Positions 31,254 to 50,971 of a stretch of 52,331 bases of DNA are shown piece after piece (the first letter of the stretch is position 1; every line of letters starts with the position of its first letter). The notes under the pieces were generated by a model. That model searched no databases. It was not told where the DNA came from and worked only from the letters and a program-made list of their open reading frames with translations. The DNA is from an uncultured Algibacter sp. (GTDB taxonomy: Bacteria; Bacteroidota; Bacteroidia; Flavobacteriales; Flavobacteriaceae): the NCBI GenBank assembly GCA_937958265.1, contig CALGNX010000022.1:1-52331 (forward strand). Direction: 5' to 3'. The position numbers were made by a program, and so were the translations under genes.

Positions 31254-31335
31254 TTGCGTTAAGGATTGTAGTGGATAGCCCACAGCCCGACTTTAGGAGG
31301 TGCGAGGACTTGTAACGAAAAGCCTGACCCTTTTG
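31254..31335 (-). repeat. Dispersed repeat, copy A (5' end missing at the IS boundary)
   Basis: Read on the minus strand it starts AAAAGGGTCAGGCTTTTCG, continues through an AAGTCCTCGC block shared with copy E, and ends GGGCTATCCACT...AATCCTTAACGCA. The expected start GGGCGTTACCAC is absent: the left end of the IS982 element abuts at 31336. It lies just upstream of the secreted hypothetical gene. Confidence 0.8.
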
Positions 31336-32344
31336 ACCTGAGTTCGATTAATACAAAGTAAGTTGGTTTTTATTAACGGTTCGATATTTTATAGATGGTT
31401 TTTTAGGCAAAAAGCTATAAGCAATAAGACCTGCCACGATATTTGATAAGAAGTTAGTAAAGCTTCTATGTCTAGAATGCTCAATGTGACAAATATTCTT
31501 AAGTTCATCGTTTACAGTTTCAATAATTGAGCGTTTTCTAAGCAAAATTTTATCACTCAAAGACATTAAAGAATTTTTCATATTGTTTTTAATATGTGTG
31601 ATTAAATGCAGTCCATCAGCAAAAAGAAGTTGCATTAAATCTTTACCGATGTAACCTTTATCTGCATATAATTTTCCATAGATTTTATCTAAAAAACTTT
31701 TCTTCTTCAAAGGGCTTCTATCATCAACATTTGCTTGTGTGATAGTAAAATTTAGTATTTCACCTTTATCGTTTATAACGATATGGAGTTTAAATCCATG
31801 AAACCAGCCCATAGTAGATTTACCAGTAGTGGCAATACCTTTGAACACTTTGTTTGAATTAATTCGTTTGGGTTTACACACTCTAATTGGTGTAGAATCC
31901 ACAAAAGAAATACCTGTACACTCACCTAAACAACAAGTCTTTAAAAACAAGCTCATGGCCATTAGATTTTGCCCAACAAGCTCGGTAAATCTATTGTAGG
32001 AAACTGTGTTTGGAAATTCATCTTTCATATGCTTCTGGAGGTAAAAAATATAAAAATGTTTGAAGGTTCTAAATCCACTTAATTGAAATAGAATTGATAT
32101 GGTTATCACCTCACTTTTAGACATAATTGATGGTCGTTTTGCTGGGGTGCCCAAAAGGGCTTTATTGACTATTTGGTCATATTCTTTACAAAACTCATCA
32201 ACAATACAAAATATTTCAGTAATTTTAGAGTAGATTAACATAGATAGATTTTTAGATTAATAAATTGAAATTCAGCACTTTAATTTACTGAAAATCTATC
32301 TTTTTTACTAATATAATCTACTCAAATATTAATCGAACTCAGGT
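31336..32344 (-). mobile_element. IS982-family insertion sequence, apparently complete
   Basis: A 1009-bp element bounded by perfect 18-bp inverted repeats (31336-31353 and 32327-32344; outer end ACCTGAGTTCGATTAATA) and containing one intact transposase gene. No target-site duplication is visible: the flanks are ...CCCTTTTG on the left and TTAAAGAAA on the right. The left side abuts a truncated dispersed repeat and the right side abuts the stop codon of the thioredoxin-like gene. Confidence 0.9.
31348..32241 (-). CDS. IS982-family transposase
   Basis: A 297-residue DDE transposase, full length for IS982 and without frameshifts. The catalytic triad is visible: D115 (FVDSTPIRVCK), D194 (LYADKGYIGK) and E241 (RSIIETVNDELK). 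The N-terminal part (PSIMSKSEVITISILFQL) is the usual IS982 helical domain. The stop codon lies just inside the left inverted repeat. The element looks able to transpose. Confidence 0.93.
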   Translation of the reverse strand: MLIYSKITEIFCIVDEFCKEYDQIVNKALLGTPAKRPSIMSKSEVITISILFQLSGFRTFKHFYIFYLQKHMKDEFPNTVSYNRFTELVGQNLMAMSLFLKTCCLGECTGISFVDSTPIRVCKPKRINSNKVFKGIATTGKSTMGWFHGFKLHIVINDKGEILNFTITQANVDDRSPLKKKSFLDKIYGKLYADKGYIGKDLMQLLFADGLHLITHIKNNMKNSLMSLSDKILLRKRSIIETVNDELKNICHIEHSRHRSFTNFLSNIVAGLIAYSFLPKKPSIKYRTVNKNQLTLY

Positions 32345-32875
32345 TTAAAGAAATGGCGTTAGCGTTTTTTCTAGCTCTTCATAACTAAAAGACCTTTCGT
32401 AAAACTGTTTTTTCTCATTCTTATATATAATGGTTGCCGGTATAGAGCCAGACCAACCTGCATCAACCTTTGGTATCCAAGTATTCATATCCACATCATT
32501 CAAAACAATTATTTTAGAGTCTAAATTATGCTTTGCAATAAAGGGCTTTAATTTCTTCTCATATAAATGCGGAAAATCTAAGCTTACTAAAATTACCTCA
32601 ACACCTTCATTTTTGTAGGCCTTATTTAGCATTTCGAAATAAGGTAATTCCTTTACGCATGGCGCGCACCAGGTAGCCCAAAAATTAATAACATAAACAG
32701 TATCATCTTTTTTATTCAAAAATTTCTCAAAACCAGAAAAATCATAAATTTCAAGATTAGTAACACTGCGGGGTATTTCCTTTATATTTGTAGTATTTGC
32801 AACATTAATAACATTATTTGCTTTTTTACAGCTTGTTATTAAAGACAAAACAAAAATTAAAATAATCGATTTCAT
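32345..32875 (-). CDS. Thioredoxin-like (TlpA family) lipoprotein
   Basis: A thiol:disulfide protein of the TlpA/ResA type. From the ATG at 32875 it is 176 residues, with a lipoprotein signal (MKSIILIFVLSLITSC, lipid Cys16) that places it on the periplasmic side of a membrane. The active site WCAPC has C70 and C73, followed by the cis-Pro region (GSIPATIIY). An in-frame ATG at 32971 would add 32 residues, but it runs into the trp promoter and hides the signal peptide, so I prefer the inner start. The stop codon TAA touches the right end of the IS, so the gene escaped disruption by one base. Confidence 0.87.
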   Translation of the reverse strand: MKSIILIFVLSLITSCKKANNVINVANTTNIKEIPRSVTNLEIYDFSGFEKFLNKKDDTVYVINFWATWCAPCVKELPYFEMLNKAYKNEGVEVILVSLDFPHLYEKKLKPFIAKHNLDSKIIVLNDVDMNTWIPKVDAGWSGSIPATIIYKNEKKQFYERSFSYEELEKTLTPFL

Positions 32876-32950
32876 AAAATTAAAATTAATTAAAGCAAAA
32901 TTGTTTATTTGGTAATTTAACAAAATTTTAAACAAAAATGTTTCAAAGTT

Positions 32951-32982
32951 TTTGGGTGCTATTATTTTCATCTTTATATTTG
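32951..32982 (+). promoter_or_regulatory. Probable trp operon promoter
   Basis: TTTG (32951-32954), then 20 bases, then TATATTTG (32975-32982): a full match to the Bacteroidota TTTG...TAnnTTTG promoter. Transcription would start near 32988, about 13 bases before the leader peptide ATG. Confidence 0.7.
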
Positions 32983-33000
32983 AAAAAAGAATTTTCTAAA

Positions 33001-33048
33001 ATGAATAGATTTTTAAATAATACATGGTGGTGGTGCTTTCGAAATTAA
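33001..33048 (+). CDS. trpL: trp operon leader peptide with three tandem Trp codons
   Basis: A 15-codon ORF encoding MNRFLNNTWWWCFRN, with three consecutive TGG codons at 33025-33033. It lies between the probable promoter and a strong terminator hairpin upstream of trpE, so it is almost certainly a regulatory leader peptide. When charged tRNA-Trp is scarce, a ribosome stalled here would cover the segment just after the Trp codons and change the downstream RNA fold. Confidence 0.88.
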   Translation: MNRFLNNTWWWCFRN

Positions 33049-33125
33049 TAATCGTGAAGTAAAACCTAGTATATTTAAAATTAAAAATATCCAAAAGGCT
33101 TGTCATTCACGACAAGCCTTTTTTT
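33036..33125 (+). promoter_or_regulatory. Tryptophan attenuator (alternative RNA structures)
   Basis: Three competing pairings can be read. Segment 33036-33042 (CTTTCGA) can pair with 33052-33059 (TCGTGAAG) with one bulge and one G-U. Segment 33052-33058 (TCGTGAA) can instead pair perfectly with 33106-33112 (TTCACGA), which takes in the loop and the first bases of the right arm of the terminator. The terminator itself is 33093-33104 with 33111-33122. Stalling at the Trp codons would free 33052-33058 and favour antitermination. The pairings are seen; the mechanism is inferred from known trp attenuators. Confidence 0.8.
33093..33125 (+). terminator. Attenuator terminator hairpin of the trp operon
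   Basis: A 12-bp stem AAAAGGCTTGTC/GACAAGCCTTTT with a 6-base loop, running into a tract of seven or more T. It sits 35 bases upstream of trpE and is a strong intrinsic terminator. Confidence 0.92.
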
Positions 33126-33159
33126 ATTTCCATAAAATTGGAAACCAAAAAGTAAATTT

Positions 33160-34566
33160 ATGAAAAAATTTAGTCTATACACCCATCATAAACGCATCCT
33201 AACAGACACAATTACGCCTGTTACCGTGTATTATAAAATTCGCGATAAATACCCAAATAGCATTTTACTAGAAAGTGGCGATTATCACAGAAGCCATAAA
33301 AACTTCTCATACATTTGTTTTAACCCAATTGCAACTATTAAAGTTGAAAACGAAGTAATTACCGAGACATTTCCAGATGGCAGCACAACCACATTAAACA
33401 TCACTAAAGATGTAAATGTTGCGAACGAAATTCATAAATTCACAAAGCGATTCGACTCCAATTGCGAAGAAAATTTCAAATTTATTAATAACGGTATTTT
33501 TGGCTATACCGCCTACGATGCTGTTAAATATTTTGAAGATGTGCAAATTAGCAAGAAAGACGATTCTGTTATAATTCCAGATATCTACTATGCCGTTTAC
33601 CAAAATATAATAGCCATTAATCACTTTAAAAACGAAGCTTATATTTTTGCACACTGTTATAAGGACACACCAAATAATATCGATGCGATCGATAAGCTTA
33701 TAAACGTGCAAAAATTTGCATCCTATAACTTTAGTACAAAAGGTGAAATAACATCCAATTTAACAGACGATGAATTTAGAGCAAACGTAGAGGTGGCAAG
33801 AAAACACTGCCAACGTGGCGATGTATTTCAACTCGTATTATCGCGCCGTTTTTCGCAAAAATTCGCAGGAGACGATTTTAATATATACCGCGCCCTAAGA
33901 AGTATAAACCCATCGCCTTACCTATTTTATTTTGATTACGGCGATTTTAAAATATTTGGAAGCTCGCCCGAAGCACAACTTATTGTGGACGATGGCCTGG
34001 CAGAAATACACCCCATAGCTGGCACATTTAAACGCACCGGAGACGAGCATAAGGACGAAATTCTGGCAGAACAACTTAAAAACGACGACAAAGAAAATGC
34101 CGAGCACGTTATGCTTGTCGATTTAGCACGAAACGATTTAAGCCGCCACGGTAGCCAAGTAAAAGTAGTTACCTACCGCGAAGTTCAGTTTTTCTCCCAC
34201 GTTATCCATTTGGTAAGTAAAGTAACAGGCCAAAAACATGAAAAAACAGCTACCATGCAAGTGGTTGCAGACACCTTTCCTGCCGGCACATTAAGCGGCG
34301 CACCAAAGCACAGAGCCATGCAACTTATAGAAGATTACGAAAAAACAAGCCGCGGTTACTATGGTGGCGCCATAGGCTTTATGGATTTTAATGGTAATTT
34401 TAACCACGCCATCATGATACGCACATTTTTAAGTAAAGATTACAAACTAAACTGGCAAGCCGGCGCAGGCTTAGTATCAAAATCCAATACCGAAAACGAA
34501 CTACAAGAAGTCTATCATAAACTAGGCGCCTTAACCAAAGCCATAAAACTAGCCGAAGATATTTAG
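33160..34566 (+). CDS. trpE: Anthranilate synthase component I
   Basis: Makes anthranilate from chorismate, the first committed step of tryptophan synthesis, using ammonia from TrpG. The 468-residue protein has the N-terminal regulatory motif LLES (36-39), which binds tryptophan for feedback inhibition in known enzymes. The C-terminal chorismate-binding domain is intact (FQLVLSRRF, NPSPYLFYF, GSSPE, PIAGTFKRTGDE, FPAGTLSGAPKHRAMQ). It is the first structural gene after the attenuator. A dispersed repeat and a short tandem repeat lie in the 271-base gap to trpG. Confidence 0.97.
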   Translation: MKKFSLYTHHKRILTDTITPVTVYYKIRDKYPNSILLESGDYHRSHKNFSYICFNPIATIKVENEVITETFPDGSTTTLNITKDVNVANEIHKFTKRFDSNCEENFKFINNGIFGYTAYDAVKYFEDVQISKKDDSVIIPDIYYAVYQNIIAINHFKNEAYIFAHCYKDTPNNIDAIDKLINVQKFASYNFSTKGEITSNLTDDEFRANVEVARKHCQRGDVFQLVLSRRFSQKFAGDDFNIYRALRSINPSPYLFYFDYGDFKIFGSSPEAQLIVDDGLAEIHPIAGTFKRTGDEHKDEILAEQLKNDDKENAEHVMLVDLARNDLSRHGSQVKVVTYREVQFFSHVIHLVSKVTGQKHEKTATMQVVADTFPAGTLSGAPKHRAMQLIEDYEKTSRGYYGGAIGFMDFNGNFNHAIMIRTFLSKDYKLNWQAGAGLVSKSNTENELQEVYHKLGALTKAIKLAEDI

Positions 34567-34571
34567 CATTT

Positions 34572-34659
34572 GGGCGTTACCACAAGGGTCGGGCTTTCAC
34601 TACGCGCTCCCTCCAAAAAAGTCGGGGAGCTTAAACAAACCGTTCAATCCCTAACGCAA
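34572..34659 (+). repeat. Dispersed repeat, copy B (in the trpE-trpG gap)
   Basis: An 88-bp copy, identical to copy C (39315-39402). It begins GGGCGTTACCACAAGGGTCG and ends AATCCCTAACGCAA. The ends pair (GCGTTA with TAACGC), AGGG can pair with CCCT just inside, and GCTCCC/GGGGAGC forms an inner stem. It lies five bases after the trpE stop. Confidence 0.92.
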
Positions 34660-34707
34660 GCAAACCTAAAAAGGCACTAGTTAGCACAATCTTTATTGTG
34701 TACTTGC

Positions 34708-34740
34708 AGAAGTTAGAAGTTAGAAGTTAGAAGTTAGAAA
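34708..34740 (+). repeat. Short tandem repeat, four units of AGAAGTT
   Basis: Four perfect 7-bp units (34708-34735) followed by a partial unit, in the trpE-trpG gap. The copy number may vary between strains. A small hairpin CACAAT/ATTGTG (34685-34700) lies just before it. Confidence 0.85.
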
Positions 34741-34837
34741 AAATTAAAAAATAAGGTTTAGAAAACGTAGATTTCTTAACCACAATTATTAACAAAAATA
34801 AGGTTTCACCTTAAGAAACCAAAAGGGGCTTATTATT

Positions 34838-35404
34838 ATGAAAAAAGTATTAGTCATAGATAATTACGACAGTTTTACATACAATCTAGTACACTACCTA
34901 GAAGATTTAAATTGCGACGTAACCGTAGTAAGAAACGATAAGTTAACACTAGAAGACGTACAACCGTTCGATAAAATAGTATTATCTCCAGGCCCAGGCA
35001 TACCTGATGAAGCAGGATTATTAAAAGCCATAATACAAAAATACGCACCCACAAAAAGTATTTTAGGTGTTTGCTTAGGGCAACAAGCTATAAGTGAAGT
35101 TTTTGGAGGCTCATTAATTAATCTAGAAGATGTTTACCACGGTGTAGCAACACAGGTTACCATTTGTGTGGACGACGAGTATATATTTAAAGGTTTAAAC
35201 AAAAACATAGAAGTTGGTAGGTACCACTCATGGGTTGTAAACCCAGAACTACCAGACAGCCTAGAAGCCACATCTTTTGATGCTAACGGACAAATCATGT
35301 CCTTAAGGCATAAAACTTACGATGTACGCGGTGTACAATACCACCCAGAATCTGTATTAACACCAAACGGAAAAAAAATATTGGAGAATTGGGTAAATAA
35401 TTAG
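34838..35404 (+). CDS. trpG: Anthranilate synthase component II (glutamine amidotransferase)
   Basis: Supplies ammonia from glutamine to TrpE. The 188-residue class I amidotransferase has the catalytic triad: nucleophile C79 (GVCLGQQ), H169 and E171 (VQYHPES), with the oxyanion motif SPGPGIP near 50-56. It is a stand-alone protein, not fused to TrpD. It is separated from trpE by repeats and from trpD by 115 bases. Confidence 0.95.
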   Translation: MKKVLVIDNYDSFTYNLVHYLEDLNCDVTVVRNDKLTLEDVQPFDKIVLSPGPGIPDEAGLLKAIIQKYAPTKSILGVCLGQQAISEVFGGSLINLEDVYHGVATQVTICVDDEYIFKGLNKNIEVGRYHSWVVNPELPDSLEATSFDANGQIMSLRHKTYDVRGVQYHPESVLTPNGKKILENWVNN

Positions 35405-35484
35405 TGCCGCAACCTCAAAGTGGCGTTTTTAAATCTAGACTCAAAAAAACGAGAATCAAAAAATAAAACAACTAATTAAATTCC

Positions 35485-35497
35485 CTCTCCTTAGGAG
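35485..35497 (+). repeat. Small palindromic element in the trpG-trpD gap
   Basis: TCTCC (35485-35489) and GGAGA (35493-35497) form a hairpin within a CCCTCTCC...GGAGAAGG segment just before trpD. I recall similar sequences as common intergenic repeats in Flavobacteriia. The purine-rich stretch that follows (AGAGAGAGAAAGAG) precedes the trpD ATG. Confidence 0.45.
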
Positions 35498-35519
35498 AAG
35501 GCCAGAGAGAGAAAGAGTA

Positions 35520-36512
35520 ATGAAAGATATACTAAACAGATTAATAAATCACGAAACCATAAGCACAGAAGAGGCAAAACAAGTTATTATTAACATATCC
35601 AACAATATGTATAACCCAAGCCAAATAACATGTTTCTTATCCGTTTTTATGATGCGCAGTATAACAATAGAAGAACTAAAAGGTTTTAGAGACGCCTTAC
35701 TAGAACTTTGCCTTTCTGTAAACCTAAACGACTTTAATACTGTAGACATCGTGGGTACAGGTGGCGATGGTAAAAATACATTTAACATCTCCACACTCTC
35801 CGCCTTTATAACGGCTGGCGCAGGCGTTCACGTTTCCAAACATGGCAACTACGGTGTATCCTCAACTTCGGGTTCATCAAACGTTATGGAACATTTAGGT
35901 GTAAAATTCTCTAATAACGAAAGTTTTTTAAACCGCTGTTTGGACCAAGCAGGCATCTGCATCCTACACGCACCATTATTTCATCCTGCTATGAAAAACG
36001 TAGCACCTATCCGAAAAGCATTGGGCGTTAAAACCTTTTTTAATATGTTAGGCCCTTTAGTTAACCCATCCTTTCCAAAAAACCACGTACATGGGGTATT
36101 TAGTTTGGAAGTTTTGCGCCTGTACAGTTTTTTACATCAAAACACAGAAAATAATTACAATATTGTTTATGCTTTGGATGGTTACGATGAAATTTCCTTA
36201 ACCGGTAAAGCAAAAATAATTTCCAACCATACCGAAAAGCTATTTTCCCCACAAAATTTAGGTCTTAACACCATTACACAAGCTTCTATATTTGGCGGAA
36301 ACACCATTACAGACGCCGCAAAAATATTTATAGATATAGTAAATGGAAAAGGCACAGAAGCCCAAAACAATGTCGTTTGCGCTAATGCAGGATTAGCAAT
36401 AGCAACAACAAAACAAATTTCGCACCAACAAGGTTTTGAGTTAGCTAAGGAATCATTATTTTCTGGGAAAGCAAAAATGAGTTTAGAAAAACTAATTGCT
36501 TTAAGTAACTAA
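35520..36512 (+). CDS. trpD: Anthranilate phosphoribosyltransferase
   Basis: Joins anthranilate to PRPP, giving phosphoribosylanthranilate. The 330-residue protein shows the PRPP-binding loop GTGGDGKNTFN from 79, the KHGNYGVSSTSGSSN segment (normally KHGNRSVSS), and FHPAMKNVAPIRKALGVKTFFN for anthranilate binding. The R of the usual GNR motif is replaced by Tyr here. Stand-alone form; 48 bases before trpC. Confidence 0.95.
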   Translation: MKDILNRLINHETISTEEAKQVIINISNNMYNPSQITCFLSVFMMRSITIEELKGFRDALLELCLSVNLNDFNTVDIVGTGGDGKNTFNISTLSAFITAGAGVHVSKHGNYGVSSTSGSSNVMEHLGVKFSNNESFLNRCLDQAGICILHAPLFHPAMKNVAPIRKALGVKTFFNMLGPLVNPSFPKNHVHGVFSLEVLRLYSFLHQNTENNYNIVYALDGYDEISLTGKAKIISNHTEKLFSPQNLGLNTITQASIFGGNTITDAAKIFIDIVNGKGTEAQNNVVCANAGLAIATTKQISHQQGFELAKESLFSGKAKMSLEKLIALSN

Positions 36513-36560
36513 AATTGAACGTATTTAATAAGCACTTATTAAATTTATTAATACTAAAAC

Positions 36561-37346
36561 ATGAATATACTAGACAAAATAACGTTAGATAAACGCAAAG
36601 AAGTTGAACTTAAAAAAAGTTTAATTCCCGTTTCTCAACTAGAGCAATCTGTTTTATTTGAGAAGCAAACTATTTCCCTTGCTAACAAATTACGCCATAG
36701 TAATTCTGGTATTATTGCAGAGCATAAAAGACGTTCGCCCTCCAAATCTGTAATTAATAATAGTTTAAACGTACAAGATGTAGCCAAAGGTTACGAAAGT
36801 GCAGGCGTTTGTGGGATGTCCGTTTTAACAGATGGCAAATACTTTGGTGGCTCACTAGACGATTTACTTACAGCTAGAGCAAGTTGTAATATGCCATTAT
36901 TAAGAAAAGAATTTATAATTGACGAATATCAAATGTTAGAAGCCAAAGCTTATGGCGCAGATGTTATTTTATTAATAGCCGCTATACTAACAAGAGACGA
37001 GATTAAGCAATTTTCAACTTTTGCTAAAAGCCTAAATTTGGATGTACTTTTGGAAGTCCATAACGAAGCAGAATTACAAAAATCTATAATGCCAAGTTTG
37101 GATATGTTAGGGGTAAACAACAGAGATTTAAAAACCTTTGAGGTAAGCCTAGAAACCAGCAAAACGTTAAGCCAGTTAATCCCTAATGATTTTGTAAAAG
37201 TATCGGAAAGTGGCATTAGTAATACCAACGCCATTAAAACATTAAAACCCTATGGCTACCAAGGCTTTTTAATTGGTGAAAACTTTATGAAAACCGATAA
37301 CCCTGGCGTAAGTGCAAGCACATTTATTAAAACCTTAGAAGCATGA
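36561..37346 (+). CDS. trpC: Indole-3-glycerol phosphate synthase
   Basis: Closes the indole ring from the carboxyphenylamino-deoxyribulose phosphate intermediate. The 261-residue TIM barrel has the conserved IIAEHKRRSPSKS motif (about 50-62), LLRKEFIIDEYQ (about 114-125), LEVHNEAEL, GVNNRDLKTF and SESGI. It is separate from trpF, and its stop overlaps the trpF start by four bases (ATGA), indicating coupled translation. Confidence 0.96.
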   Translation: MNILDKITLDKRKEVELKKSLIPVSQLEQSVLFEKQTISLANKLRHSNSGIIAEHKRRSPSKSVINNSLNVQDVAKGYESAGVCGMSVLTDGKYFGGSLDDLLTARASCNMPLLRKEFIIDEYQMLEAKAYGADVILLIAAILTRDEIKQFSTFAKSLNLDVLLEVHNEAELQKSIMPSLDMLGVNNRDLKTFEVSLETSKTLSQLIPNDFVKVSESGISNTNAIKTLKPYGYQGFLIGENFMKTDNPGVSASTFIKTLEA

Positions 37347-38047
37347 AATTAAAAGTATGCGGCATGAAATACCAAGATAACATTGAGCATGTTGCGGCAT
37401 TGCAGCCAGACTATCTAGGTTTTATATTTTACGAAAAATCTGAACGGAATTTTGATGCAGATAACATTCCAAAACTTTCTACTTCCATAAAAAAAACAGG
37501 TGTGTTTGTAAATGCTGAAATAGAATTTGTTCTAGAAAAAATAAGTAAATATAATTTACAAGCAGTACAATTACATGGTAAAGAATCTCCTGAATATTGC
37601 GTAAATTTACAATACGCTTTTAAAGAAGCCACGGCAAAAAAAAAGAATTTATTACCAGGTAATAACGCAGACTTAAAAACACCTACAAATGTCGAAAAAT
37701 TAGAAATATTTAAAGTCTTTTCTATAAAAGACACATTCGATTTTAGTGTTTTAAAGCCCTATGAAAATACTTGCGATTTCTTTTTATTCGATACCAAAGG
37801 AAAATTACATGGTGGTAATGGATACACCTTTAATTGGAGTGTATTAAATAATTACCCATCAACAAAACCCTACTTTTTAAGTGGTGGCTTAGGGTTAGCA
37901 GAAGTTGAGGCTATCAAGGCATTTACAAATAGTAAGGCCTCCAAATATTGTTATGCCTTGGATGTAAATAGTAAATTTGAAATTAAACCAGGTTTAAAAG
38001 ATATTTCAGTTTTAAAAACATTTATAAACAAGGTTTTTACTAATTAA
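37343..38047 (+). CDS. trpF: Phosphoribosylanthranilate isomerase
   Basis: Catalyses the Amadori rearrangement before the TrpC step. The 234-residue TIM barrel starts KVCGMKYQDNI (catalytic Cys6) and has VQLHG, FLFDTKGKLHGGNG (catalytic Asp) and FLSGGLGL. A run of Lys (KKKN) near residue 94-97 lies in a loop. Coupled to trpC by a four-base overlap. Confidence 0.95.
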   Translation: MKLKVCGMKYQDNIEHVAALQPDYLGFIFYEKSERNFDADNIPKLSTSIKKTGVFVNAEIEFVLEKISKYNLQAVQLHGKESPEYCVNLQYAFKEATAKKKNLLPGNNADLKTPTNVEKLEIFKVFSIKDTFDFSVLKPYENTCDFFLFDTKGKLHGGNGYTFNWSVLNNYPSTKPYFLSGGLGLAEVEAIKAFTNSKASKYCYALDVNSKFEIKPGLKDISVLKTFINKVFTN

Positions 38048-38127
38048 AACTAGTAGCAAAATACTGTAAATAAAAAATTGCAAGGCCTCGCAAGAGTCCA
38101 AACCTAAAAAACAAAAAAGAAAAAGCT

Positions 38128-39309
38128 ATGAATTACAATGTAGACGAAAAAGGTTACTACGGTGAATTTGGAGGTGCCTATATACCAGAAATGCTTTATC
38201 CAAACGTAGAAGAATTACGCGAAAATTATTTAAAAGTAATAGCAGAACCCGATTTTCAAAAAGAATTTAACCAACTCCTTAAAGATTATGTTGGCCGCCC
38301 TTCTCCGCTTTATTTTGCAAAGCGACTTTCGGAAAAATACAATACAAAAATATACTTAAAACGCGAAGATTTAAACCATACAGGTGCGCACAAAATAAAC
38401 AATACTATAGGCCAAATTTTAATGGCACAGCGTTTAGGTAAAACTAGAATTATTGCAGAAACTGGCGCAGGCCAACATGGTGTTGCAACCGCCACCGTTT
38501 GTGCTTTAATGGGACTAGAGTGCATCGTGTACATGGGCGAAATTGATATTGCACGACAAGCGCCAAACGTAGCTAGAATGAAAATGCTAGGCGCAAAAGT
38601 AGTCGCAGCACTATCTGGAAGCCGCACCCTAAAAGACGCCACAAACGAGGCCATTCGCGATTGGATAAATAACCCTGTAGATACGCATTATATTATAGGA
38701 TCTGCCATTGGCCCACACCCCTATCCAGATATGGTAACGCGGTTTCAAGCTATTGTTTCCGAAGAAATTAAATGGCAATTAAAAGAGCAAATAGGTAGAG
38801 AAAATCCAGATTACGTAGTAGCCTGTATTGGCGGTGGTAGTAATGCCGCTGGCACATACTACCATTATTTACATGAGCCAGATGTTGGTATTATTGCTGT
38901 GGAAGCTGCAGGTTTAGGCATCGATTCTGGCGAAAGTGCAGCCACATCCGTATTAGGTAAAGAAGGTATTATCCATGGCTGTAAAACCCTTTTAATGCAA
39001 ACTAAAGATGGGCAGATAACAGAGCCTTATTCAATTTCGGCAGGTTTGGATTATCCTGGTGTTGGCCCCATGCATGCTCATTTAGCAAAAACAGGACGCG
39101 CAGAATTCGTCTCCATTACAGATGATGATGCTATGAATGCTGGTTTAGAGCTTTCAAAATTAGAAGGTATTATCCCAGCCATAGAAACCTCGCACGCCTT
39201 AGCCATGTTTAAGTATAAAACCTTTAAACCAGACGATGTGGTGGTAGTAAATTTATCTGGTCGTGGCGATAAAGATTTGCAAAATTATATAGATTATTTT
39301 AAAATTTAA
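38128..39309 (+). CDS. trpB: Tryptophan synthase beta chain
   Basis: Condenses indole with serine to give tryptophan. The 393-residue PLP enzyme starts with [12 protein letters not shown], carries the PLP lysine K89 (HTGAHKINN), [11 protein letters not shown], and the phosphate cup CIGGGSNA. It matches TrpB1, the form that pairs with TrpA. The 80-base gap from trpF holds no clear terminator. Copy C of the dispersed repeat starts six bases after the stop. Confidence 0.98.
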
Positions 39310-39314
39310 AACTA

Positions 39315-39402
39315 GGGCGTTACCACAAGGGTCGGGCTTTCACTACGCGCTCCCTCCAAAAAAGTCGGGGAGCTTAAACAAACCGTTCAATCCCTAACGC
39401 AA
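39315..39402 (+). repeat. Dispersed repeat, copy C (in the trpB-trpA gap)
   Basis: Identical over all 88 bp to copy B and in the same orientation, 4743 bp away. It would be transcribed as part of the trp mRNA. Confidence 0.92.
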
Positions 39403-39450
39403 ACAGACCTCACAAGCATTAAAAACTAGTAAGGTCTTAAACAAAATACG

Positions 39451-40215
39451 ATGAACAGAATAAACAAGAAATTACAAGAAAACAAAAAATTACTATCCAT
39501 ATATTTTACTGCGGGTTACCCAAATATAAATGATACCGTTACAACCATTCAAAATTTAGAAAAAAACGGTGTAGACATGATTGAAATTGGCCTACCGTTT
39601 AGCGACCCCTTAGCCGATGGACCTACCATACAAGATAGCTCCACAAAAGCTATTAAAAACGGCATGACATCAGAAGTGCTTTTTAACCAACTAAAAGATA
39701 TCCGGAAAACCGTAAACATTCCTCTAATTATTATGGGCTACTTTAACCCTATGTTTCAATACGGTATGGAAGCGTTCTGTAAAAAATGCCAAGATATTGG
39801 TGTGGATGGCTTAATAATCCCAGATCTTCCAGTAGATATTTATAACGCTGAATACAAAAGTATTTTTGAAAAATACGGGCTTATAAACGTGTTTTTAATT
39901 ACGCCGCAAACTAGCGAGAAACGTATTCGATTTATCGATTCCATTTCAAACGGATTTATATATATGGTAAGTAGCGCAAGTACCACCGGAACACAGTCTG
40001 GTTTTGGAGACCAACAAACCGCTTATTTTAAACGTATTGCAAACATGAACTTAAAAAACCCGCAAATTATTGGTTTTGGTATTAGTAATCATGAAACATT
40101 TACCCAAGCAACGCAATATGCCAAAGGCGCAATTATTGGTAGTGCTTTTGTTAAACACGTTACTAAACATGGCGTAGATACCATTAATACATTTACAAAT
40201 ACGATTTTAAATTAA
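39451..40215 (+). CDS. trpA: Tryptophan synthase alpha chain
   Basis: Cleaves indole-3-glycerol phosphate to indole, which is channelled to TrpB. The 254-residue TIM barrel has the catalytic Glu45 and Asp56 in EIGLPFSDPLADGPTIQ. It also has the MGYFNP motif, the DGLIIPDLP segment and the GFGISNHE phosphate site. It is the last gene of the operon. Confidence 0.97.
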   Translation: MNRINKKLQENKKLLSIYFTAGYPNINDTVTTIQNLEKNGVDMIEIGLPFSDPLADGPTIQDSSTKAIKNGMTSEVLFNQLKDIRKTVNIPLIIMGYFNPMFQYGMEAFCKKCQDIGVDGLIIPDLPVDIYNAEYKSIFEKYGLINVFLITPQTSEKRIRFIDSISNGFIYMVSSASTTGTQSGFGDQQTAYFKRIANMNLKNPQIIGFGISNHETFTQATQYAKGAIIGSAFVKHVTKHGVDTINTFTNTILN

Positions 40216-40241
40216 ATCCATTTTCATTTATTTAAATACAT

Positions 40242-44614: not shown

Positions 44615-44685
44615 AAAACGTTAAAGTAGGTTTGGAGATTTTATAACATCAAAATACTAATTATTAAACCTATTTGGGCGGGCTT

Positions 44686-44903: not shown

Positions 44904-45608
44904 CTAAGGCGTTATAAATTCAGCTTCAAAGAGATTACTAAAATGTTTAAGTAACTTCTTTTTAACATCGGCCTCATCAATTTCTTGTTTTCCTAGCTCT
45001 ATATTTAAAGAGGTTACGGCTTTACCTCGTATACCACAGGGAATCATTAAATCGAAATATCCCAAATCTGCATTTACATTTAAGGCAAAACCATGCATGG
45101 TTACCCAACGACTAGCACGTACTCCCATAGCACAAATTTTTCTTGCAAATGGTGTACCTACATCTAGCCAGACACCGGTTTCGCCTGGACTACGTTCAGA
45201 CTTTATACCATACTCGGCAAGCGTTAAAATAATCATTTCCTCAAGAAAACGAAGGTATTTATGAATATCGGTAAAGAAATTATCTAAATCCAAAATAGGA
45301 TAACCCACTATTTGACCTGGGCCGTGGTAGGTAATATCACCACCACGATTTACTTTATAAAAAGTGGCATTTTTAGCTTTTAATTGGGCTTCGTTTACCA
45401 ACAAATTAGCCATATCGCCACTTTTACCTAAAGTATAAACATGTGGGTGCTCTACAAATAGAAAATGGTTTTGGGTTTTTAAACCCGCATTTGCTCTTCT
45501 GTTTTTTATTTTAGTATCTACAACTCCCTTAAATAATTGCTCTTGGTAATCCCAGGTGTCCTGGTAATCCTTTTGGCCTAAATCTTGTAGTTTTATTTGC
45601 TTGTTCAT
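44904..45608 (-). CDS. lipB: Octanoyl-(acyl-carrier-protein) protein N-octanoyltransferase
   Basis: Transfers octanoate from ACP to lipoyl domains, the first step of lipoate synthesis. The 234-residue protein has RGGDITYHGPGQIVGYP (from 88), catalytic Lys157 in RKICAMGVR and the acyl-binding Cys191 in IPCGI. Usual length for LipB. lipA is not in the window. Its stop converges on the nucleoid-protein gene and its start is divergent from lysS. Confidence 0.96.
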   Translation of the reverse strand: MNKQIKLQDLGQKDYQDTWDYQEQLFKGVVDTKIKNRRANAGLKTQNHFLFVEHPHVYTLGKSGDMANLLVNEAQLKAKNATFYKVNRGGDITYHGPGQIVGYPILDLDNFFTDIHKYLRFLEEMIILTLAEYGIKSERSPGETGVWLDVGTPFARKICAMGVRASRWVTMHGFALNVNADLGYFDLMIPCGIRGKAVTSLNIELGKQEIDEADVKKKLLKHFSNLFEAEFITP

Positions 45609-45952
45609 AAGGCTATAAAATTACGACTTATTCCCGGGCTAAGCCAAAATGCCTATAATAAAAATGTGTGTTTTTAAAAATTATGTAAATTACTAAACAA
45701 AGCGAGCTATAAAACAATTAGCTTTTAAGTACTAGTATTAAAACTACTTTTAAACGTTTAAGTTAGCATATAGCACATATTATTTTATAGGTTGTAGTAA
45801 ATAATTAACGCTACTAAAAATGGGAGAAAAACAATTATAATTGGTCAATAAAAATTTTTAAAATAATTAAAGGTTTACAAACAAAAACTAGTAACACCCA
45901 ATTAACTTTAAATTCCTTTAGTTGTTTTAAGGCTAAATTAATTACTGTGGTT

Positions 45953-46100
45953 AGCGTAAGGGATAGAAACGGTATCCTTTTTTAATTTAAAAACACCCCT
46001 AATATTTGTTCTATTAGTTAGTTAATTTATAAACTTTCTTAGGCTTGCAATACCTTTTAAAAAAGATTTAGTGGATAGCCCGACCCTTGTGGTTACGCCC
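45953..46100 (-). repeat. Dispersed repeat, copy D (longer, divergent middle)
   Basis: On the minus strand it starts GGGCGTAACCACAAGGGTCG and ends ACCGTTTCTATCCCTTACGC, matching the ends of copies B and C. The middle ~95 bases are different and AT-rich. Its ends pair as GCGTAA with TTACGC, while copies B, C and E pair as GCGTTA with TAACGC, a compensatory change. Confidence 0.75.
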
Positions 46101-46144
46101 AAAAAAATGGTAAATCAATACCTGCAAATGGAAAATCAAATGTT

Positions 46145-46152
46145 TATCTTTG
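46145..46152 (+). promoter_or_regulatory. Candidate -7 element for lysS
   Basis: TATCTTTG matches TAnnTTTG and lies 29 bases before the ATG, so the 5' leader would be about 20-25 bases. No clear TTG box is present at the usual spacing. Confidence 0.55.
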
Positions 46153-46181
46153 CGACTTAATTTTTTACACAAAAATGTATT

Positions 46182-47873
46182 ATGTCACAATTATCTGAGC
46201 AAGAGCTTGTACGAAGAGAAAAGCTTACTAAATTACGTGCGTTAGGAATTAATCCTTATCCGGCAGATTTATTTCCTGTTAGTGAAACCTCCAAACAAAT
46301 TAAAAATAATTTTGAAGCGGATAAACAGGTCGTTGTTGCAGGGCGTTTAATGGCTATTAACATACAAGGAAAGGCGTCTTTTGCGCAATTGCAAGATGCT
46401 GAGGGGCGCATTCAGTTATATTTTAACCGCGATGAAATTTGTACTGGCGAGGATAAGGAATTGTATAATACAGTTTTTAAAAAATTATTAGATTTAGGTG
46501 ATTTTGTTGGTATTGAAGGGACTTTGTTTACTACGCAAGTGGGCGAAAAAACCATTATGGTTAAAAACTTTAGTTTATTAAGTAAGTCGTTAAAACCATT
46601 ACCCATACCGAAACAAAAAGACGGTAAAACTTACGATGCTTTTACAGATCCTGAAATGCGCTACAGACAGCGTTATGCCGATTTAGTGGTTAACCCAAAG
46701 GTTAAAGATGTGTTTGTTAAACGTACTAAATTGTTTAATGCTATGCGTGAGTTTTTTAACAACTCCGGCTATTTTGAGGTAGAAACCCCTGTTTTACAAC
46801 CTATACCAGGTGGTGCCGCAGCTCGTCCATTTGCAACACACCACAATGCTTTAGATGTGCCTTTGTATATGCGAATTGCTAACGAATTGTATTTAAAACG
46901 CTTAATTGTTGGTGGTTTTGATGGGGTTTATGAGTTTTCTAAAAACTTTAGAAACGAGGGTATGGACAGAACGCATAATCCTGAGTTTACAGCTATGGAA
47001 ATTTATGTGGCTTATAAAGATTATAATTGGATGATGGATTTCTGCGAGCGCCTTTTAGAGCATTGTGCTATAGCAGTAAATGGCACTACAAAAGCTACAT
47101 TTGGAACTCACGAAATTGATTTTAAAGCACCTTATGCTAGAGTAACCATGGCAGATTCTATTAAACATTTTACAGGGTTTGATATTACCGGTAAAACTGA
47201 ATCTGAGATTAGAGAAGCCGCGAAAGCTATGGGCGTTGAAGTGGATGCTACTATGGGTAAAGGCAAGTTAATTGATGAGATTTTTGGCGAAAAATGTGAA
47301 GGTAACTACATACAACCTACTTACATTACAGATTACCCAAAAGAAATGAGCCCATTGTGTAAAGAGCACCGCGATAACCCTGAATTAACAGAGCGTTTTG
47401 AGCTTATGGTTTGTGGCAAGGAAATAGCTAACGCATATTCTGAGCTTAACGACCCGATAGACCAACGTGAACGTTTTGAACACCAATTAAAATTAGCTGC
47501 AAAAGGCGATGATGAGGCTACCGAGTTTATTGATGAAGATTTTTTACGCGCCTTGGAATACGGCATGCCTCCAACATCGGGTATGGGAATTGGTATGGAT
47601 CGCTTAATTATGTTTTTAACCAATAACCAATCCATACAAGAAGTTTTATTCTTCCCCCAAATGCGCCCAGAAAAAAAGGCAATGCCAATTAGTGATGAGG
47701 CTAAGGCTGTTTTTGAAATTTTAAAAAAGGCAGAAAAATTAGAACTTACAGACCTAAAAATAAAGTCTGGTTTGTCCAATAAAAAATGGGATAAAACCAT
47801 TAAAGAATTAACAAAAAATAACCTTGTTAAAGTAATAAAAACAGAGGAAGGTTTATTTGTAAATATCTTATAA
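46182..47873 (+). CDS. lysS: Lysyl-tRNA synthetase (class II)
   Basis: Charges tRNA-Lys. The 563-residue protein has the N-terminal OB-fold anticodon-binding domain (about 50-150), class II motif 2 ([15 protein letters not shown] from 256, with R257) and motif 3 (GMGIGMDRL, 467-475, R474). At 563 residues it is about 60 longer than E. coli LysS. The extra C-terminal segment (about 505-563) looks like a small winged-helix-type domain and is, as I recall, common in Bacteroidota. A strong terminator follows. Confidence 0.98.
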
Positions 47874-47883
47874 TTTAATAAAT

Positions 47884-47922
47884 AAAAACAGCCGATAATT
47901 ATAAAATTACCGGCTGTTTTTC
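47884..47922 (+). terminator. Terminator after lysS
   Basis: AAAAACAGCCG (47884-47894) pairs with CGGCTGTTTTT (47911-47921). The stem extends inward with ATAATT/AATTA after one mismatch, and ends in T. It lies 11 bases after the stop. Confidence 0.9.
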
Positions 47923-48275
47923 TACTAATCAAATTAACTAACCTCCACACAAAGATAGGGTAACAACAATTGCTGTAAATGCATTTTTGGTTATATTTAA
48001 CAATACTTAATAGCTTTTTAATTTTCATTTAAGAGATTATATAACAGTTTGTTAATTTTTTTAAGAAAAAGTGTATTTACTTCGTTACAAAACATAAAAA
48101 TAAAGTACCAATACCTTTTGTATTTAACTTTACTTAATAGTTAATACAAAATAAAATTTTTGCGTTTAGTATTACAAAAACATTACACAATAAAACCATA
48201 TAAAGTAATGCAAAAGCATAGTAATAAAAGAACAAAACTTAAATAGCCTGAAACATACATTACTTTACTAAATAA
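47923..48275. other. AT-rich intergenic region between convergent genes
   Basis: After the lysS terminator, 353 bases of AT-rich sequence reach the end of the small membrane-protein gene. I see no gene, RNA or repeat. Confidence 0.6.
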
Positions 48276-48464
48276 TTATTTTACATTAATTACTAAAAGT
48301 ACAAGTTGTGCTATAAAAAAAGGAATGGTAAATAACTCTACAATACCCCACAAAATAACGGTTTGCAATTTATAAATGTATACCACATAAAGCATTAAAA
48401 AATATAAAACAACAGCAAAATTAAGTAACGTTAACCTATGTGTTTTAAAAAAAATATTACTCAT
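48276..48464 (-). CDS. Small two-helix membrane protein
   Basis: A 62-residue protein from the ATG at 48464 (MSNIFFKTHRLTLLNF). It is mostly two hydrophobic segments (about 13-31 and 37-60) and is not recognised. The start overlaps the stop of the upstream yiaA-like gene by eight bases, so it is probably translated from the same mRNA. A longer frame from 48527 exists but lies inside the yiaA-like gene. Confidence 0.6.
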   Translation of the reverse strand: MSNIFFKTHRLTLLNFAVVLYFLMLYVVYIYKLQTVILWGIVELFTIPFFIAQLVLLVINVK

Positions 48465-48936
48465 CCTCTTCAGGCCTATTAAAATATTGTACGTCTCTAG
48501 TATTTTTCTGTACAGCAATAGCAGCAAATAAACTTAATATAAATGCCATAGCGTAAAAACCTTTTTCGCTTAATAGTAAATCGGCGTTCCAAAGTCCGAT
48601 TATTAATAACACAATGGAAACTATGGTTGTAAACCAGCTAATTCCGTAATACATATCGGTTACAGGAATATCCTCCATTCTATCCCGTACAGCTTTTTGT
48701 ACCGATATTACCGAAAACAAACCAAAAAGTAAAACTGTAAAATAGTAGCCCTTCTCATTAAGTAACATATCGGCATTCCATAAACCTATACAAAAAGAAG
48801 TAATACCCACCAGTAAAACAGACCAAGATGCACCTATAAAAGCAGGCGTTGGCTTTTGGTTGTAACCCTTACGCTTTTTAGTTACGTTTATTTCTTTTTT
48901 GTTTTCGTTTTCAGGTAATGTTGATTGATAATTCAT
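48457..48936 (-). CDS. yiaA: YiaA-type inner membrane protein (two YiaA/B domains)
   Basis: A 159-residue protein with four predicted membrane helices arranged as two copies of the YiaA/B two-helix domain. The internal repeat is clear: SFCIGLWNADMLLNEKGYYF and LLIIGLWNADLLLSEKGFYA. A charged N-terminus (about 1-28) precedes it. Function unknown in the family. It overlaps the small membrane-protein gene downstream. Confidence 0.88.
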   Translation of the reverse strand: MNYQSTLPENENKKEINVTKKRKGYNQKPTPAFIGASWSVLLVGITSFCIGLWNADMLLNEKGYYFTVLLFGLFSVISVQKAVRDRMEDIPVTDMYYGISWFTTIVSIVLLIIGLWNADLLLSEKGFYAMAFILSLFAAIAVQKNTRDVQYFNRPEEDE

Positions 48937-49087
48937 AATATTCTATTTTATTAATTACAGGACAAAACTGCAAAACTTATAGGATAAAAAAAACACAAAA
49001 TTTATACAAACCTGACGATATAAAAGCATACTTATTAACATAACACCTATATTGTAGAACTTATATAATTATTTAATGACGATTTAA

Positions 49088-50611
49088 ATGACAGATTTAA
49101 ACAACATAATTTCAACATTTACTAAGGAAGAGCAACAAAAATTTATAAATTATCTACAAAAAAAGAATAAACGCACCGATACAAAAAACATAGACCTATT
49201 TCATTATTTGCTAGATAATACTTTAAACTCTAAAGCCATTTGTATAAAACTCTACGGTACACAAAAGCAAGCGGCCTATCATGCCTTAAGAAAACGTTTG
49301 TACCAATCTGTAATACGTTTTACGGCAAAGCAAAGATTACAAGACGAAGGCTCTATAAATATGCAAATTATAGAATACATTTTAGCTGCAAAATCATTTT
49401 TACAGCAAAAACAAGTTAAAGTTGCTTGTAACCTATTACAAAAAGCCGAAATATTAGCCAATAAGCATGCTTTATTCGCGCTACTAAACGAAATATACCA
49501 TACTCAAATTCAATATGCGCACACAAATCCCGATTTGGTACTAGAAAACCTACTATTAAAATTTAAAAACAACCAATTAAAACTCCAACAAGAAGATGCC
49601 CTTAATATAATTTATGCTAAAGTAAGAGCGGCCATAAACAGCGCAACATACAAAGGCGAAGTAACCGATTTTGAAACCATTATAAAAACTATTTTTAAAG
49701 AACAACGCATTACTGTACACCATACATTATCCTTCAAATCACTATACCAAATAGTTAAATTAGCTAGTGATTCTGTTTTTGTTACAAAAAATTATTTAAA
49801 AATTGAACCCTTTCTAATAACAACTTACAAAACAATTTTAAATCATAACAATCAAGAAAAACAAATATTTTACCACATCCAAATACTTTATACGATATCT
49901 GATACCCTTTTCCGAAACAAAAAATTTAACGAATCGCTTTCCTATTTAAAAACTATGCATTCGTACATGCGGCTTCAACAAAATAAACATTACCCTACTT
50001 TTACTTTAAAATACCATTTACTACTAGCCTTAAACCTCAATTATAACAATAAACCACTAGAAGCTATACAAACTTTAAAACCTACAGTAACTAAAAAATA
50101 TAGAGATACAGAAACCTGGCACGATATACAACTAAGCCTAATAGTATTTTATTTCCAGCAAAACATGTTTAAAAAGGCTAATAACATATTAAGCTCATTA
50201 TTTCATACAGATAGTTGGTACACCGAAAAAGTTGGCAAAGAATGGGTTATAAAAAAAAACTTAATCGAAATTTTATTACATATAGAGTTAAAAAACACAA
50301 ACCTTGTAGAATCCAGGCTAATAAGCTTTAAACGAAGTTACCAAGCCTACTTGAAAAATATAAACCAAACACGCGTTATTACCTACTTAAACTTTGTAAG
50401 CATCTATTATAAACACCCTGAAAGCGTAACATCTGCCTCATATAAAAATAAAGTAGAGCAAGCATTTAACTGGACAGAAAATTACAACGACGATATTTTT
50501 GTTATAAGTTTTTACAGTTGGCTAAAAGGTAAAATGACTAACACAAATGTATTTACAGTAACCTTAAATCTTATAAAGCAAGCACAACAGAAGTTATCGC
50601 TAAACCAATAA
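49088..50611 (+). CDS. 507-residue protein of unknown function, helical-repeat-like
   Basis: Not recognised by name. The protein has no signal peptide or membrane segment. It is rich in Leu, Lys, Asn and Gln and appears almost fully helical, with regularly spaced Leu/Ala/Tyr helices such as VACNLLQKAEILANKHALFALLNEIY and FNESLSYLKTMHSYM, each reminiscent of TPR-like or ARM-like helical pairs. The N-terminal region (FTKEEQQKFINYLQKKNKR, then FHYLLDNTLNSKAICIKLYG) resembles the start of a family of Bacteroidota hypothetical proteins I have seen. The codon use agrees with its neighbours. It may be a scaffold; no function is claimed. Confidence 0.8.
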   Translation: MTDLNNIISTFTKEEQQKFINYLQKKNKRTDTKNIDLFHYLLDNTLNSKAICIKLYGTQKQAAYHALRKRLYQSVIRFTAKQRLQDEGSINMQIIEYILAAKSFLQQKQVKVACNLLQKAEILANKHALFALLNEIYHTQIQYAHTNPDLVLENLLLKFKNNQLKLQQEDALNIIYAKVRAAINSATYKGEVTDFETIIKTIFKEQRITVHHTLSFKSLYQIVKLASDSVFVTKNYLKIEPFLITTYKTILNHNNQEKQIFYHIQILYTISDTLFRNKKFNESLSYLKTMHSYMRLQQNKHYPTFTLKYHLLLALNLNYNNKPLEAIQTLKPTVTKKYRDTETWHDIQLSLIVFYFQQNMFKKANNILSSLFHTDSWYTEKVGKEWVIKKNLIEILLHIELKNTNLVESRLISFKRSYQAYLKNINQTRVITYLNFVSIYYKHPESVTSASYKNKVEQAFNWTENYNDDIFVISFYSWLKGKMTNTNVFTVTLNLIKQAQQKLSLNQ

Positions 50612-50971
50612 AACAATTCATTAAATTCCAAATAACCAACAAACTAACCCAAAGTCACTATTAATAAACCCTTAAACATCCATCAATAATAACTCTAGTA
50701 ACAATAAACGCCCATTAAGTTTTTATAAATATATGGGCGTTACCACAAGGGTCGCGCTTTCCGTTTCAAGTCCTCGCTTCTCCGCTCGCGCTACAAAACT
50801 GTGGGCTTTCCACTGCAATCCCTAACGCAAAACCTACAGAACTCGAAAAAAATTATAACAATATTCAGAAAAATGAAAAGAGTATTAAACCTTTTTTCAA
50901 TTACAAAGTCAAAATAACAAATACATGTATAAACCAAATTTCGCACTTGCGGAATACTAAAACAAAATATT
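50612..50971. other. Intergenic region with repeat copy E
   Basis: A 360-bp gap. Besides copy E it has an inverted repeat AACGCCCAT/ATGGGCGTT (50707-50715 with 50733-50741) whose right arm is the start of copy E. Confidence 0.6.
50735..50830 (+). repeat. Dispersed repeat, copy E
   Basis: A 96-bp copy that begins GGGCGTTACCACAAGGGTCG, as in copies B and C, but has the middle of copy A (AAGTCCTCGC, then GTGGGCTTTCCACT) and ends GCAATCCCTAACGCAA. It combines the 5' end of one subtype with the middle of another. Confidence 0.88.

What the first reader, a model, noticed from the sequence alone, without database searches (positions are those of the whole stretch)
31254..50830. Family of five dispersed intergenic repeats with conserved paired ends and swapped middles
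Copies at 31254-31335 (-), 34572-34659 (+), 39315-39402 (+), 45953-46100 (-) and 50735-50830 (+) share a 5' end GGGCGTtACCACAAGGGTCG and a 3' end aATCCCTAACGC. The termini are complementary (GCGTTA/TAACGC), and in copy D both sides changed together (GCGTAA/TTACGC), which points to selection for a stem. Middles fall into at least three types, with copy E joining the B/C-type start to the A-type middle. All are intergenic; none encodes protein. This could be a REP- or MITE-like element moved in trans, or a structured RNA carried in mRNA tails.
Basis: partly seen in the sequence, partly recalled or inferred. Interest (0 to 1): 0.7.

Follow-up and report, generated by a model that had tools for sequence, protein, structure and literature searches.

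The report
Swappable-arm hairpin repeats of Bacteroidia
The five repeats are real and belong to a very widespread family of short folded repeats (known to databases only in part, as 'Flavo-1') that sit mostly behind genes, keep their fold by paired mutations and seem able to have their middle arm replaced in place; what moves them is unknown.

Summary
Observation largely confirmed. Copies B-E are intact. Copy A lacks the GGGCGTTACC end because an IS abuts it; E is an ordinary member of A's type, not a join of two types. Copy D passes the Rfam cut-off for Flavo-1 (RF01705), an orphan sRNA candidate, so the family is known in part.

Added here: (1) the element is a three-way-junction fold, P1 GCGTTA/TAACGC, mini-hairpin P2, arm P3, with strong covariation (paired cells and covariation score not reached in 500 shuffles); (2) my model finds it in 190 of 249 Flavobacteriaceae and 104 of 247 Bacteroidia genomes, 141 matches in one genome, and on Bacteroidales plasmids; (3) between two Algibacter species 22 of 30 mapped sites keep the type, 2 changed arm type but share the same non-consensus P1 ends; (4) elements differ by 3.3%, non-coding flanks by 8.2%; (5) no statistical link to RAYT-type transposases, no autonomous version in 1.15 Mb, no clean empty site at 4 sites examined.

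Most likely a REP/BIME-like structural repeat kept for its fold, mostly behind genes and also inside the trp operon. The mRNA-end role is inferred and the mover unknown. New variant of a known kind.

The parts
31256..31335 (-). Copy A, type A arm, left-truncated (P1 5' strand and start of P2 missing, IS abuts at 31337)
   Evidence: model match 31262-31338
34572..34657 (+). Copy B, type B arm, 5 nt behind the stop of trpE, in the trpE-trpG spacer
39315..39400 (+). Copy C, type B arm, 5 nt behind the stop of trpB, in the trpB-trpA spacer; identical to B over 86 bp
45953..46100 (-). Copy D, type III arm; Rfam Flavo-1 on the + strand (45949-46089, 46.3 bits, cut-off 42); compensated P1 GCGTAA/TTACGC; lies in a divergent spacer
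50735..50828 (+). Copy E, complete type A
31337..32343 (-). IS with DDE_Tnp_1_3 transposase (ORF 31348-32241), ends CCTGAGTTCGATTAAT; borders the truncated copy A
33160..40215 (+). trp operon that holds copies B and C (trpE 33160-34566, trpG-type amidotransferase 34838-35404, trpB-type PALP enzyme 38128-39309, trpA 39451-40215)
   Evidence: Bacteroid-trp leader 32981-33104

Best explanation
A REP/BIME-like, non-coding, dispersed structural repeat of the class Bacteroidia, of which Rfam Flavo-1 is one arm type. One strand folds into a three-way junction: P1 (GCGTTA/TAACGC) closes it, P2 (CC...GG mini-hairpin) and P3 (GGG/CCC, conserved mismatches, then an exchangeable arm of type A, B, C or III) branch from it. 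Copies arise by copying into spacers, mostly behind stop codons (shown by identical copies and by sites occupied in some species and absent in others; the enzyme is unknown). Afterwards the fold is kept where it stands by selection (supported by compensated ends and by slower change than the flanks), and the arm can be exchanged in place, probably by recombination with another copy through the short conserved blocks on either side (exchange well supported at one site and suggested at a second; the route is inferred). The selected benefit is probably an mRNA end structure: behind a stop codon the transcript folds in either orientation and slows 3' decay or uncouples cistrons, as I recall REPs doing in operons (inferred, perhaps 35% likely by itself).
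For: Covariation: 43 copies, 98.0% of cells paired against 91.4% shuffled and 40 double-change cells against 9.9, neither reached in 500 shuffles; slid controls 26-49%. RNAalifold, given no structure, proposes 5 of the 6 P1 pairs, outer P3, and P2 in a register shifted by one column. Class-wide set of 34 copies: 94.9% against 85.8% (alignment fitted to the model). P3 position 5 is T-A 140, A-T 40, G-C 3, other 5 of 188. P1 in 48 copies found without demanding pairing: 14 double-compensated cells (5 variants at 7 sites, orthologues counted in both species); of 11 unpaired cells 6 are at the last pair, 4 in two copies with a palindrome inserted in P1, 1 elsewhere. P2 arms of 4 bp or more in 25 of 61 copies (ACC/GGT itself is part of the search patterns). 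Arm exchange: G004C4:165755 and G002C16:136929 map by their flanks and share the first 25 nt, with GCATTC/TAATGC ends and P2 CCCAAGGG, but carry arms III and C; site D shares GCGCTA/TAGCGC with arms A and III. Three of these four arms have a 0.92-0.94 similar copy elsewhere in the fetched part of the same genome. Divergence in 22 orthologous pairs: element 72 of 2205 (3.3%), non-coding flank 233 of 2841 (8.2%), nearby coding 197 of 3640 (5.4%). Divergent spacers hold 4 of 56 copies but are 96 of 387 background spacers of 100 bp or more. The trpB-trpA spacer is occupied in 10 of 10 Algibacter-group genomes, with several arm types and 4 flipped, and in 4 of 28 genomes of other genera.
Against: No clear orientation preference relative to genes (upstream gene in sense 81 of 144; tandem spacers 23 sense, 21 antisense), which a strand-specific mRNA element should show. 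In F. psychrophilum Flavo-1 hits lay indifferently in sense or antisense of transcripts and many outside them (PMC9723704, passages). Low divergence could partly reflect conversion between copies, or detection favouring conserved copies, and replaced spacers inflate the flank value. The P1 ends used as markers are not unique: GCGCTA is carried by at least 9 copies of G002 (capped list) and GCATT[A/C] by 3 sites in the fetched part of G004, and at site D P2 differs, so replacement by another copy of the same subgroup is not excluded there. The sixth P1 pair is lost in 23 of 33 class-wide copies. In 12 of 28 other genera trpB and trpA lie 17 nt or less apart, so no element is needed there.
Confidence: 0.55

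Rival explanations
1. A purely selfish non-autonomous mobile hairpin (single-stranded DNA element), moved in trans by an enzyme not yet recognised and without use to the host.
For: Identical dispersed copies, 141 matches in one genome, presence on Bacteroidales plasmids, left flank nearly always T-T-[T/A] (87, 88 and 99% of 156), no clear orientation bias relative to genes. CGTC-type REPs are a precedent for palindromic repeats without a dedicated transposase (PMC3733652, passages).
Against: Elements change more slowly than their flanks; D's compensated P1 is the only one of its kind among the 46 listed places of the genome, which suggests change in place; no clean empty site or duplication at 4 examined absent sites; no version with left and right end further apart than 149 bp in 1.15 Mb.
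Confidence: 0.27
2. REP element mobilised by a RAYT (Y1 HUH transposase).
For: Extragenic folded repeats of high copy number; RAYT subclass 2.6 of Bacteroidetes is flanked by 'atypical secondary structures' (PMC6006769, passages).
Against: No link of copy number with Y1_Tnp in 249 genomes (p=0.84). In the 10 Algibacter-group genomes no Y1_Tnp match is better than 1.3e-11: the best are partial or lie in long fused frames, G001, G002, G008 and G009 have weak near-full-length ones (2.6e-7 to 6.1e-5, frames of 194-542 aa), and G005 and G007 have none at E 0.001 although G007 has 141 element matches. The element is absent from 29 Y1_Tnp loci of relatives, and no Flavo-1 hit at E 10 or better lies in the 20 of them given to Rfam.
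Confidence: 0.05
3. Flavo-1 is a trans-acting small RNA gene with its own promoter.
For: Rfam types it 'Gene; sRNA'.
Against: Dozens to more than a hundred copies per genome in high-copy genomes; the flanks show only a T-rich left edge; transcription inconsistent in F. psychrophilum.
Confidence: 0.05
4. Intrinsic transcription terminators.
For: Hairpins right behind stop codons.
Against: None of the 13 terminator-like sites listed for 31100-51000 coincides with any of the five copies (12.6 expected by chance); B and C lie between genes of the trp operon.
Confidence: 0.05

Closest known systems
Rfam RF01705 Flavo-1
   Same: Copy D over the cut-off; same P3 core and mismatches; of 29 class-wide loci fetched with my model, 20 were given to Rfam and 14 of these reach its cut-off.
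   Different: The Rfam model pairs only the P3 part; P1 and P2 lie outside its pairing (alignments). Copies A and E (type A) stay below the cut-off (28.9 and 29.1 bits) and B and C (type B) are not listed at E 1. Rfam calls it an sRNA; the data here look like a dispersed repeat.
REP / BIME / REPIN elements with RAYT
   Same: Extragenic, high-copy, folded, mosaic, placed behind genes and inside operons.
   Different: Mostly about 76-156 bp with a three-way junction instead of a 20-40 bp GTAG-tagged hairpin (PMC3733652, passages); no RAYT link; arms exchanged.
CGTC-tagged palindromic repeats (PMC3733652, passages)
   Same: Palindromic repeats that lack a dedicated transposase.
   Different: Longer, other ends, other fold; no sequence comparison with the CGTC families was made here.
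MITEs
   Same: Short, non-coding, dispersed, complementary ends.
   Different: Ends pair over 6 bp only, no target duplication seen, no autonomous parent found.

Membership tests
Rfam Flavo-1 (RF01705) | Score at or above the gathering score 42 | tested here: met
   Copy D 46.3 bits; 9 of 85 listed hits in the genome. Not met by copies A and E (28.9 and 29.1); B and C no hit at E 1.
Rfam Flavo-1 (RF01705) | Shared P3 core with conserved mismatches | tested here: met
REP/RAYT system | RAYT gene in the genome or flanked by the repeat | tested here: not met
   weak Y1_Tnp matches exist in some genus-mates
REP/RAYT system | Short hairpin tagged with GTAG (or CGTC) | tested here: not met
   Ends are GGGCGTTA and TAACGC, or D's paired variant, in the intact copies read; the tag definition is from PMC3733652, passages
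REP/BIME (descriptive) | High-copy, extragenic, behind genes | tested here: met
   4 of 56 copies lie in divergent spacers, as does copy D
MITE | Target-site duplication at clean empty sites | tested here: inconclusive
   4 sites absent in the partner, spacer also replaced, no duplication visible
MITE | Autonomous element with the same ends | tested here: not met
mRNA-end stabilising element | Measured effect on 3' decay | not testable with these tools
   no transcript data available

The most novel reading that the evidence does not exclude
A hairpin 'socket and cassette' system: the element's P1/P2 base stays fixed at a chromosomal site for long times while a dedicated single-strand recombination activity, unrelated to RAYTs, inserts and exchanges folded arm cassettes and other palindromic repeats in its loops, throughout the Bacteroidia.
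Probability: 0.1. Interest if true: 0.8.

Novelty: new variant of a known kind. Interest (0 to 1): 0.5.

Why it matters
It turns an orphan Rfam 'sRNA' into a class-wide structural repeat with a better defined fold, gives evidence that arms are swapped at fixed sites, and argues against the obvious mover. It makes two old questions testable: what copies palindromic repeats that have no RAYT, and whether such repeats act in mRNA or in single-stranded DNA.

Tried and rejected
RAYT hypothesis: rejected for canonical RAYTs. Autonomous parent: none in 1.15 Mb. Phage carriers: copy E has no match in the phage collection; the 28 viral contigs with the 15-mer gave nothing better than E 0.058 with the model. 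Strand asymmetry of wobble pairs: at first it seemed to single out the Flavo-1 strand (33 against 9 in 204 sequences, 22 against 7 in 136), but after removing more of the similar sequences it vanished (9 against 7 in 85), so I do not claim which strand folds. Replication-strand bias: 50 copies in 20 stretches of G007 contig C1 do not follow GC skew (27 against 23). Two-hairpin reading of type A: covariation favours pairing of the outer blocks across the element. Integron attC: looked at for its folded ends; I recall that the order of the end boxes is the other way round; not tested. Right-flank motif TCYGY in 25 of 207 copies, against 2 in control stretches and 9 in left flanks: a minority feature, left aside. 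Loci were selected by their left end, so P1 and P2 statistics from them are biased; P1 was therefore recounted on contigs of G002 and G004 without demanding pairing. Dropped before counts: 16 of 160 copies at locus edges; 5 of 61 elements (4 inside ORFs, 1 without neighbours); 5 of 35 unmapped; one weak hit outside the spacer (17.8 bits). Print: the listings showed no paper that I recognised as describing these repeats as dispersed elements; Flavo-1 itself was seen in PMC2864571 (table row) and PMC9723704 (passages).
Full report
What is in the sequence. All five copies can be read at the given places. A covariance model, R1, built from 43 copies of many species (copy E is the only window copy among them) finds these five and no others in the window. 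Copy A is truncated: an IS whose ends read CCTGAGTTCGATTAAT lies at 31337-32343 and the repeat begins abruptly at its edge; the transposase is of the DDE_Tnp_1_3 kind and matches to the IS lie at several contig ends of this genome. Copies B and C are identical over 86 bp and have a type B arm; A and E have a type A arm; D has the long type III arm. B lies between trpE and a trpG-type gene, C between trpB and trpA.

Known family. Copy D is Flavo-1 (RF01705) by Rfam's own threshold; A and E are below it and B and C do not appear. In the whole genome 85 Flavo-1 matches are listed at E 10 or better, 9 of them above the cut-off and 74 with E below 0.01 (10 of 14 control genomes also give something at E 10, none above the cut-off). 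Flavo-1 was predicted by comparative genomics in 2010 (PMC2864571, table row seen in passages), and a transcriptome study of Flavobacterium psychrophilum found its hits indifferently in sense or antisense of transcripts (PMC9723704, passages). The listings of my paper searches showed none that I recognised as treating it as a dispersed repeat.

Fold. On the Flavo-1 strand the element reads GCGTTA GGGATTG...GGAAAGCCC GACC NNNN GGTAACGC. P1, P2 and P3 form a three-way junction. In the 43-sequence alignment 98.0% of cells pair against 91.4% in shuffles, with 40 double changes against 9.9, neither reached in 500 shuffles (two weaker measures were reached by 1 and 20), and sliding the partner by 1-3 columns drops pairing to 26-49%. 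RNAalifold, given no structure, proposes 5 of 6 P1 pairs, outer P3, and P2 shifted by one column. In 188 copies the fifth position of P3 is T-A 140 times, A-T 40, G-C 3 and unpaired 5 times. The neighbouring mismatches C.T, T.C and C.T (A.G, G.A and A.G on the other strand) are conserved in most copies. In 34 copies from 33 loci of the wider class P1 and P3 vary further with compensation, though the sixth P1 pair is lost in 23 of 33 (this alignment was fitted to the model). P2 has arms of 4 bp or more in 25 of 61 copies of two species, with sequences as different as ACCC/GGGT, ACCGC/GCGGT and ACTTTTT/AAAAAGT; the basic ACC/GGT is part of the search patterns and proves nothing. I could not decide which strand folds: an apparent wobble asymmetry disappeared when similar sequences were removed.

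Distribution. R1 matches 190 of 249 Flavobacteriaceae genomes, 158 of 202 genera, at E 0.01 (at most 17 candidates scored per genome), and 104 of 247 genomes of the class, 62 of 142 genera, at E 0.001. Algibacter marinivivus (G007) alone gives 141 matches at E 0.01 (150 candidates scored). 63 plasmid records, all of Bacteroides, Parabacteroides or Phocaeicola, match copy E by blastn; the five fetched from them score 51-68 bits with R1. Copy E has no match among phage records.

Sites. At orthologous sites of ten genomes: the trpB-trpA site (C) is occupied in 10 of 10, with several arm types and reversed orientation in 4; site D in 9 of 10, type III or type A (one much altered); site B in 4 of 10, while in 5 the genes lie 1-3 nt apart and in 1 a spacer has no element; site E in 6 of the 7 other genomes with both flanks found. 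Thirty trpA loci of the family (the 30 best of 58 genomes with a match; two of the Algibacter group, 28 others) gave 6 strong hits, all in the trpB-trpA spacer: two Algibacter and 4 of 28 others; one further weak hit (17.8 bits) lies elsewhere; in 12 of 28 the two genes lie 17 nt or less apart.

Arms change in place. In 1.15 Mb from two species that are about 92% identical I found 61 elements. Of 35 in G004, 5 could not be mapped; of 30 mapped, 22 have the same type at the same place, 2 have another arm, and 6 were scored as absent. Of these 6, two (items 50 and 60) in fact carry an element changed by inserts, and one site holds an unrelated palindromic repeat (item 45). In both arm changes the non-consensus P1 ends are shared by the two species: GCATTC/TAATGC at G004C4:165755, GCGCTA/TAGCGC at site D. 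At 165755 P2 is shared too, so that the first 25 nt are identical while the arm differs; I saw this combination of P1 and P2 at no other site in the outputs. At site D P2 differs, and GCGCTA ends are common in G002 (at least 9 listed copies), so there a replacement by another copy of that subgroup is also possible. Similar arms (0.92-0.94) exist elsewhere in the fetched part of the same genome for 3 of the 4. Other palindromic repeats also sit inside the element at a few recurrent points, in P1 between GCG and TTA, in P2 and in P3.

Selection. In 22 orthologous pairs of the same type the element differs at 72 of 2205 positions, its non-coding flanks (within 150 bp) at 233 of 2841, and nearby coding bases at 197 of 3640. 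Spacer replacement may inflate the flank value and detection may favour conserved elements. P1 in 48 copies of the two species has 14 double-compensated cells (5 variants at 7 sites) and hardly a single mismatch outside the last pair and two copies with inserts. Copies avoid divergent spacers (4 of 56 against 96 of 387 background spacers), so nearly all lie behind at least one gene; copy D is an exception. They show no clear orientation preference (81 of 144; 23 against 21 in tandem spacers, orthologues counted twice).

What moves it. Not a canonical RAYT, as far as these data go: the genome's only Y1_Tnp match at E 0.001 is inside an Eco57I-type protein; Y1_Tnp at E 1e-10 is as common in high-copy genomes (11 of 47, including the window's own fused domain) as in the others (43 of 202); 29 Y1_Tnp loci of relatives do not carry the element. 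Some genus-mates have weak Y1-like matches in proteins of about 190-540 aa, which I did not follow up. No longer version with paired ends exists in 1.15 Mb. At four sites where the partner lacks the element, the neighbouring spacer is different too, so there is no clean empty site or target duplication.

Conclusion. The element is a Flavo-1-clan, REP/BIME-like structural repeat. That it protects or separates mRNAs behind stop codons is my preferred reading, from position, operon location and slow change, but it is inferred; a selfish hairpin with an unknown mover is the main rival.

Noticed in passing
L009 (window's own genome, contig C27, about 52090-55389): A Y1_Tnp (IS200-type HUH) domain lies inside a type IIG Eco57I-like restriction-modification protein, residues 456-555 of a frame of 1055 aa that runs off the locus, with an HVH motif. 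Y1 matches in frames of 1144-1302 aa also occur in genus-mates G001-G004; their fusion partner was not checked.
   Followed up: partly
window 40951-41132: Another dispersed repeat of about 160-180 bp, 87-90% identical to four other places of the same genome and 83% to one in G005.
   Followed up: no
L244 and L246 around 2361-3030: On two related Bacteroidales plasmids the element starts right at the end of a 'recombinase family protein' gene.
   Followed up: no
G004C4:176930 against G002C16 near 129604: An unrelated palindromic repeat with CCTCCCC/GGGGAGG-like arms stands in one species where the other has the element; other short palindromes (CCCGATAGCTATCGGG, CCTGCCGGCAGG, ACCTACAAGGTT..AACCTTGCAGG) nest inside elements.
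   Followed up: partly
right flanks of copies: 25 of 207 right flanks carry TCYGY within 20 nt, against 2 of 207 control stretches and 9 of 207 left flanks: perhaps a tail module of a subset.
   Followed up: partly
G007 contig C1: Copies with the exact left end run on the minus strand in 8 of 9 cases up to 400 kb and on the plus strand in 13 of 13 beyond. Seen after the fact; copies of this contig do not follow GC skew.
   Followed up: partly
window 32981-33104: Bacteroid-trp leader (RF01692) upstream of trpE, 51.3 bits.
   Followed up: no
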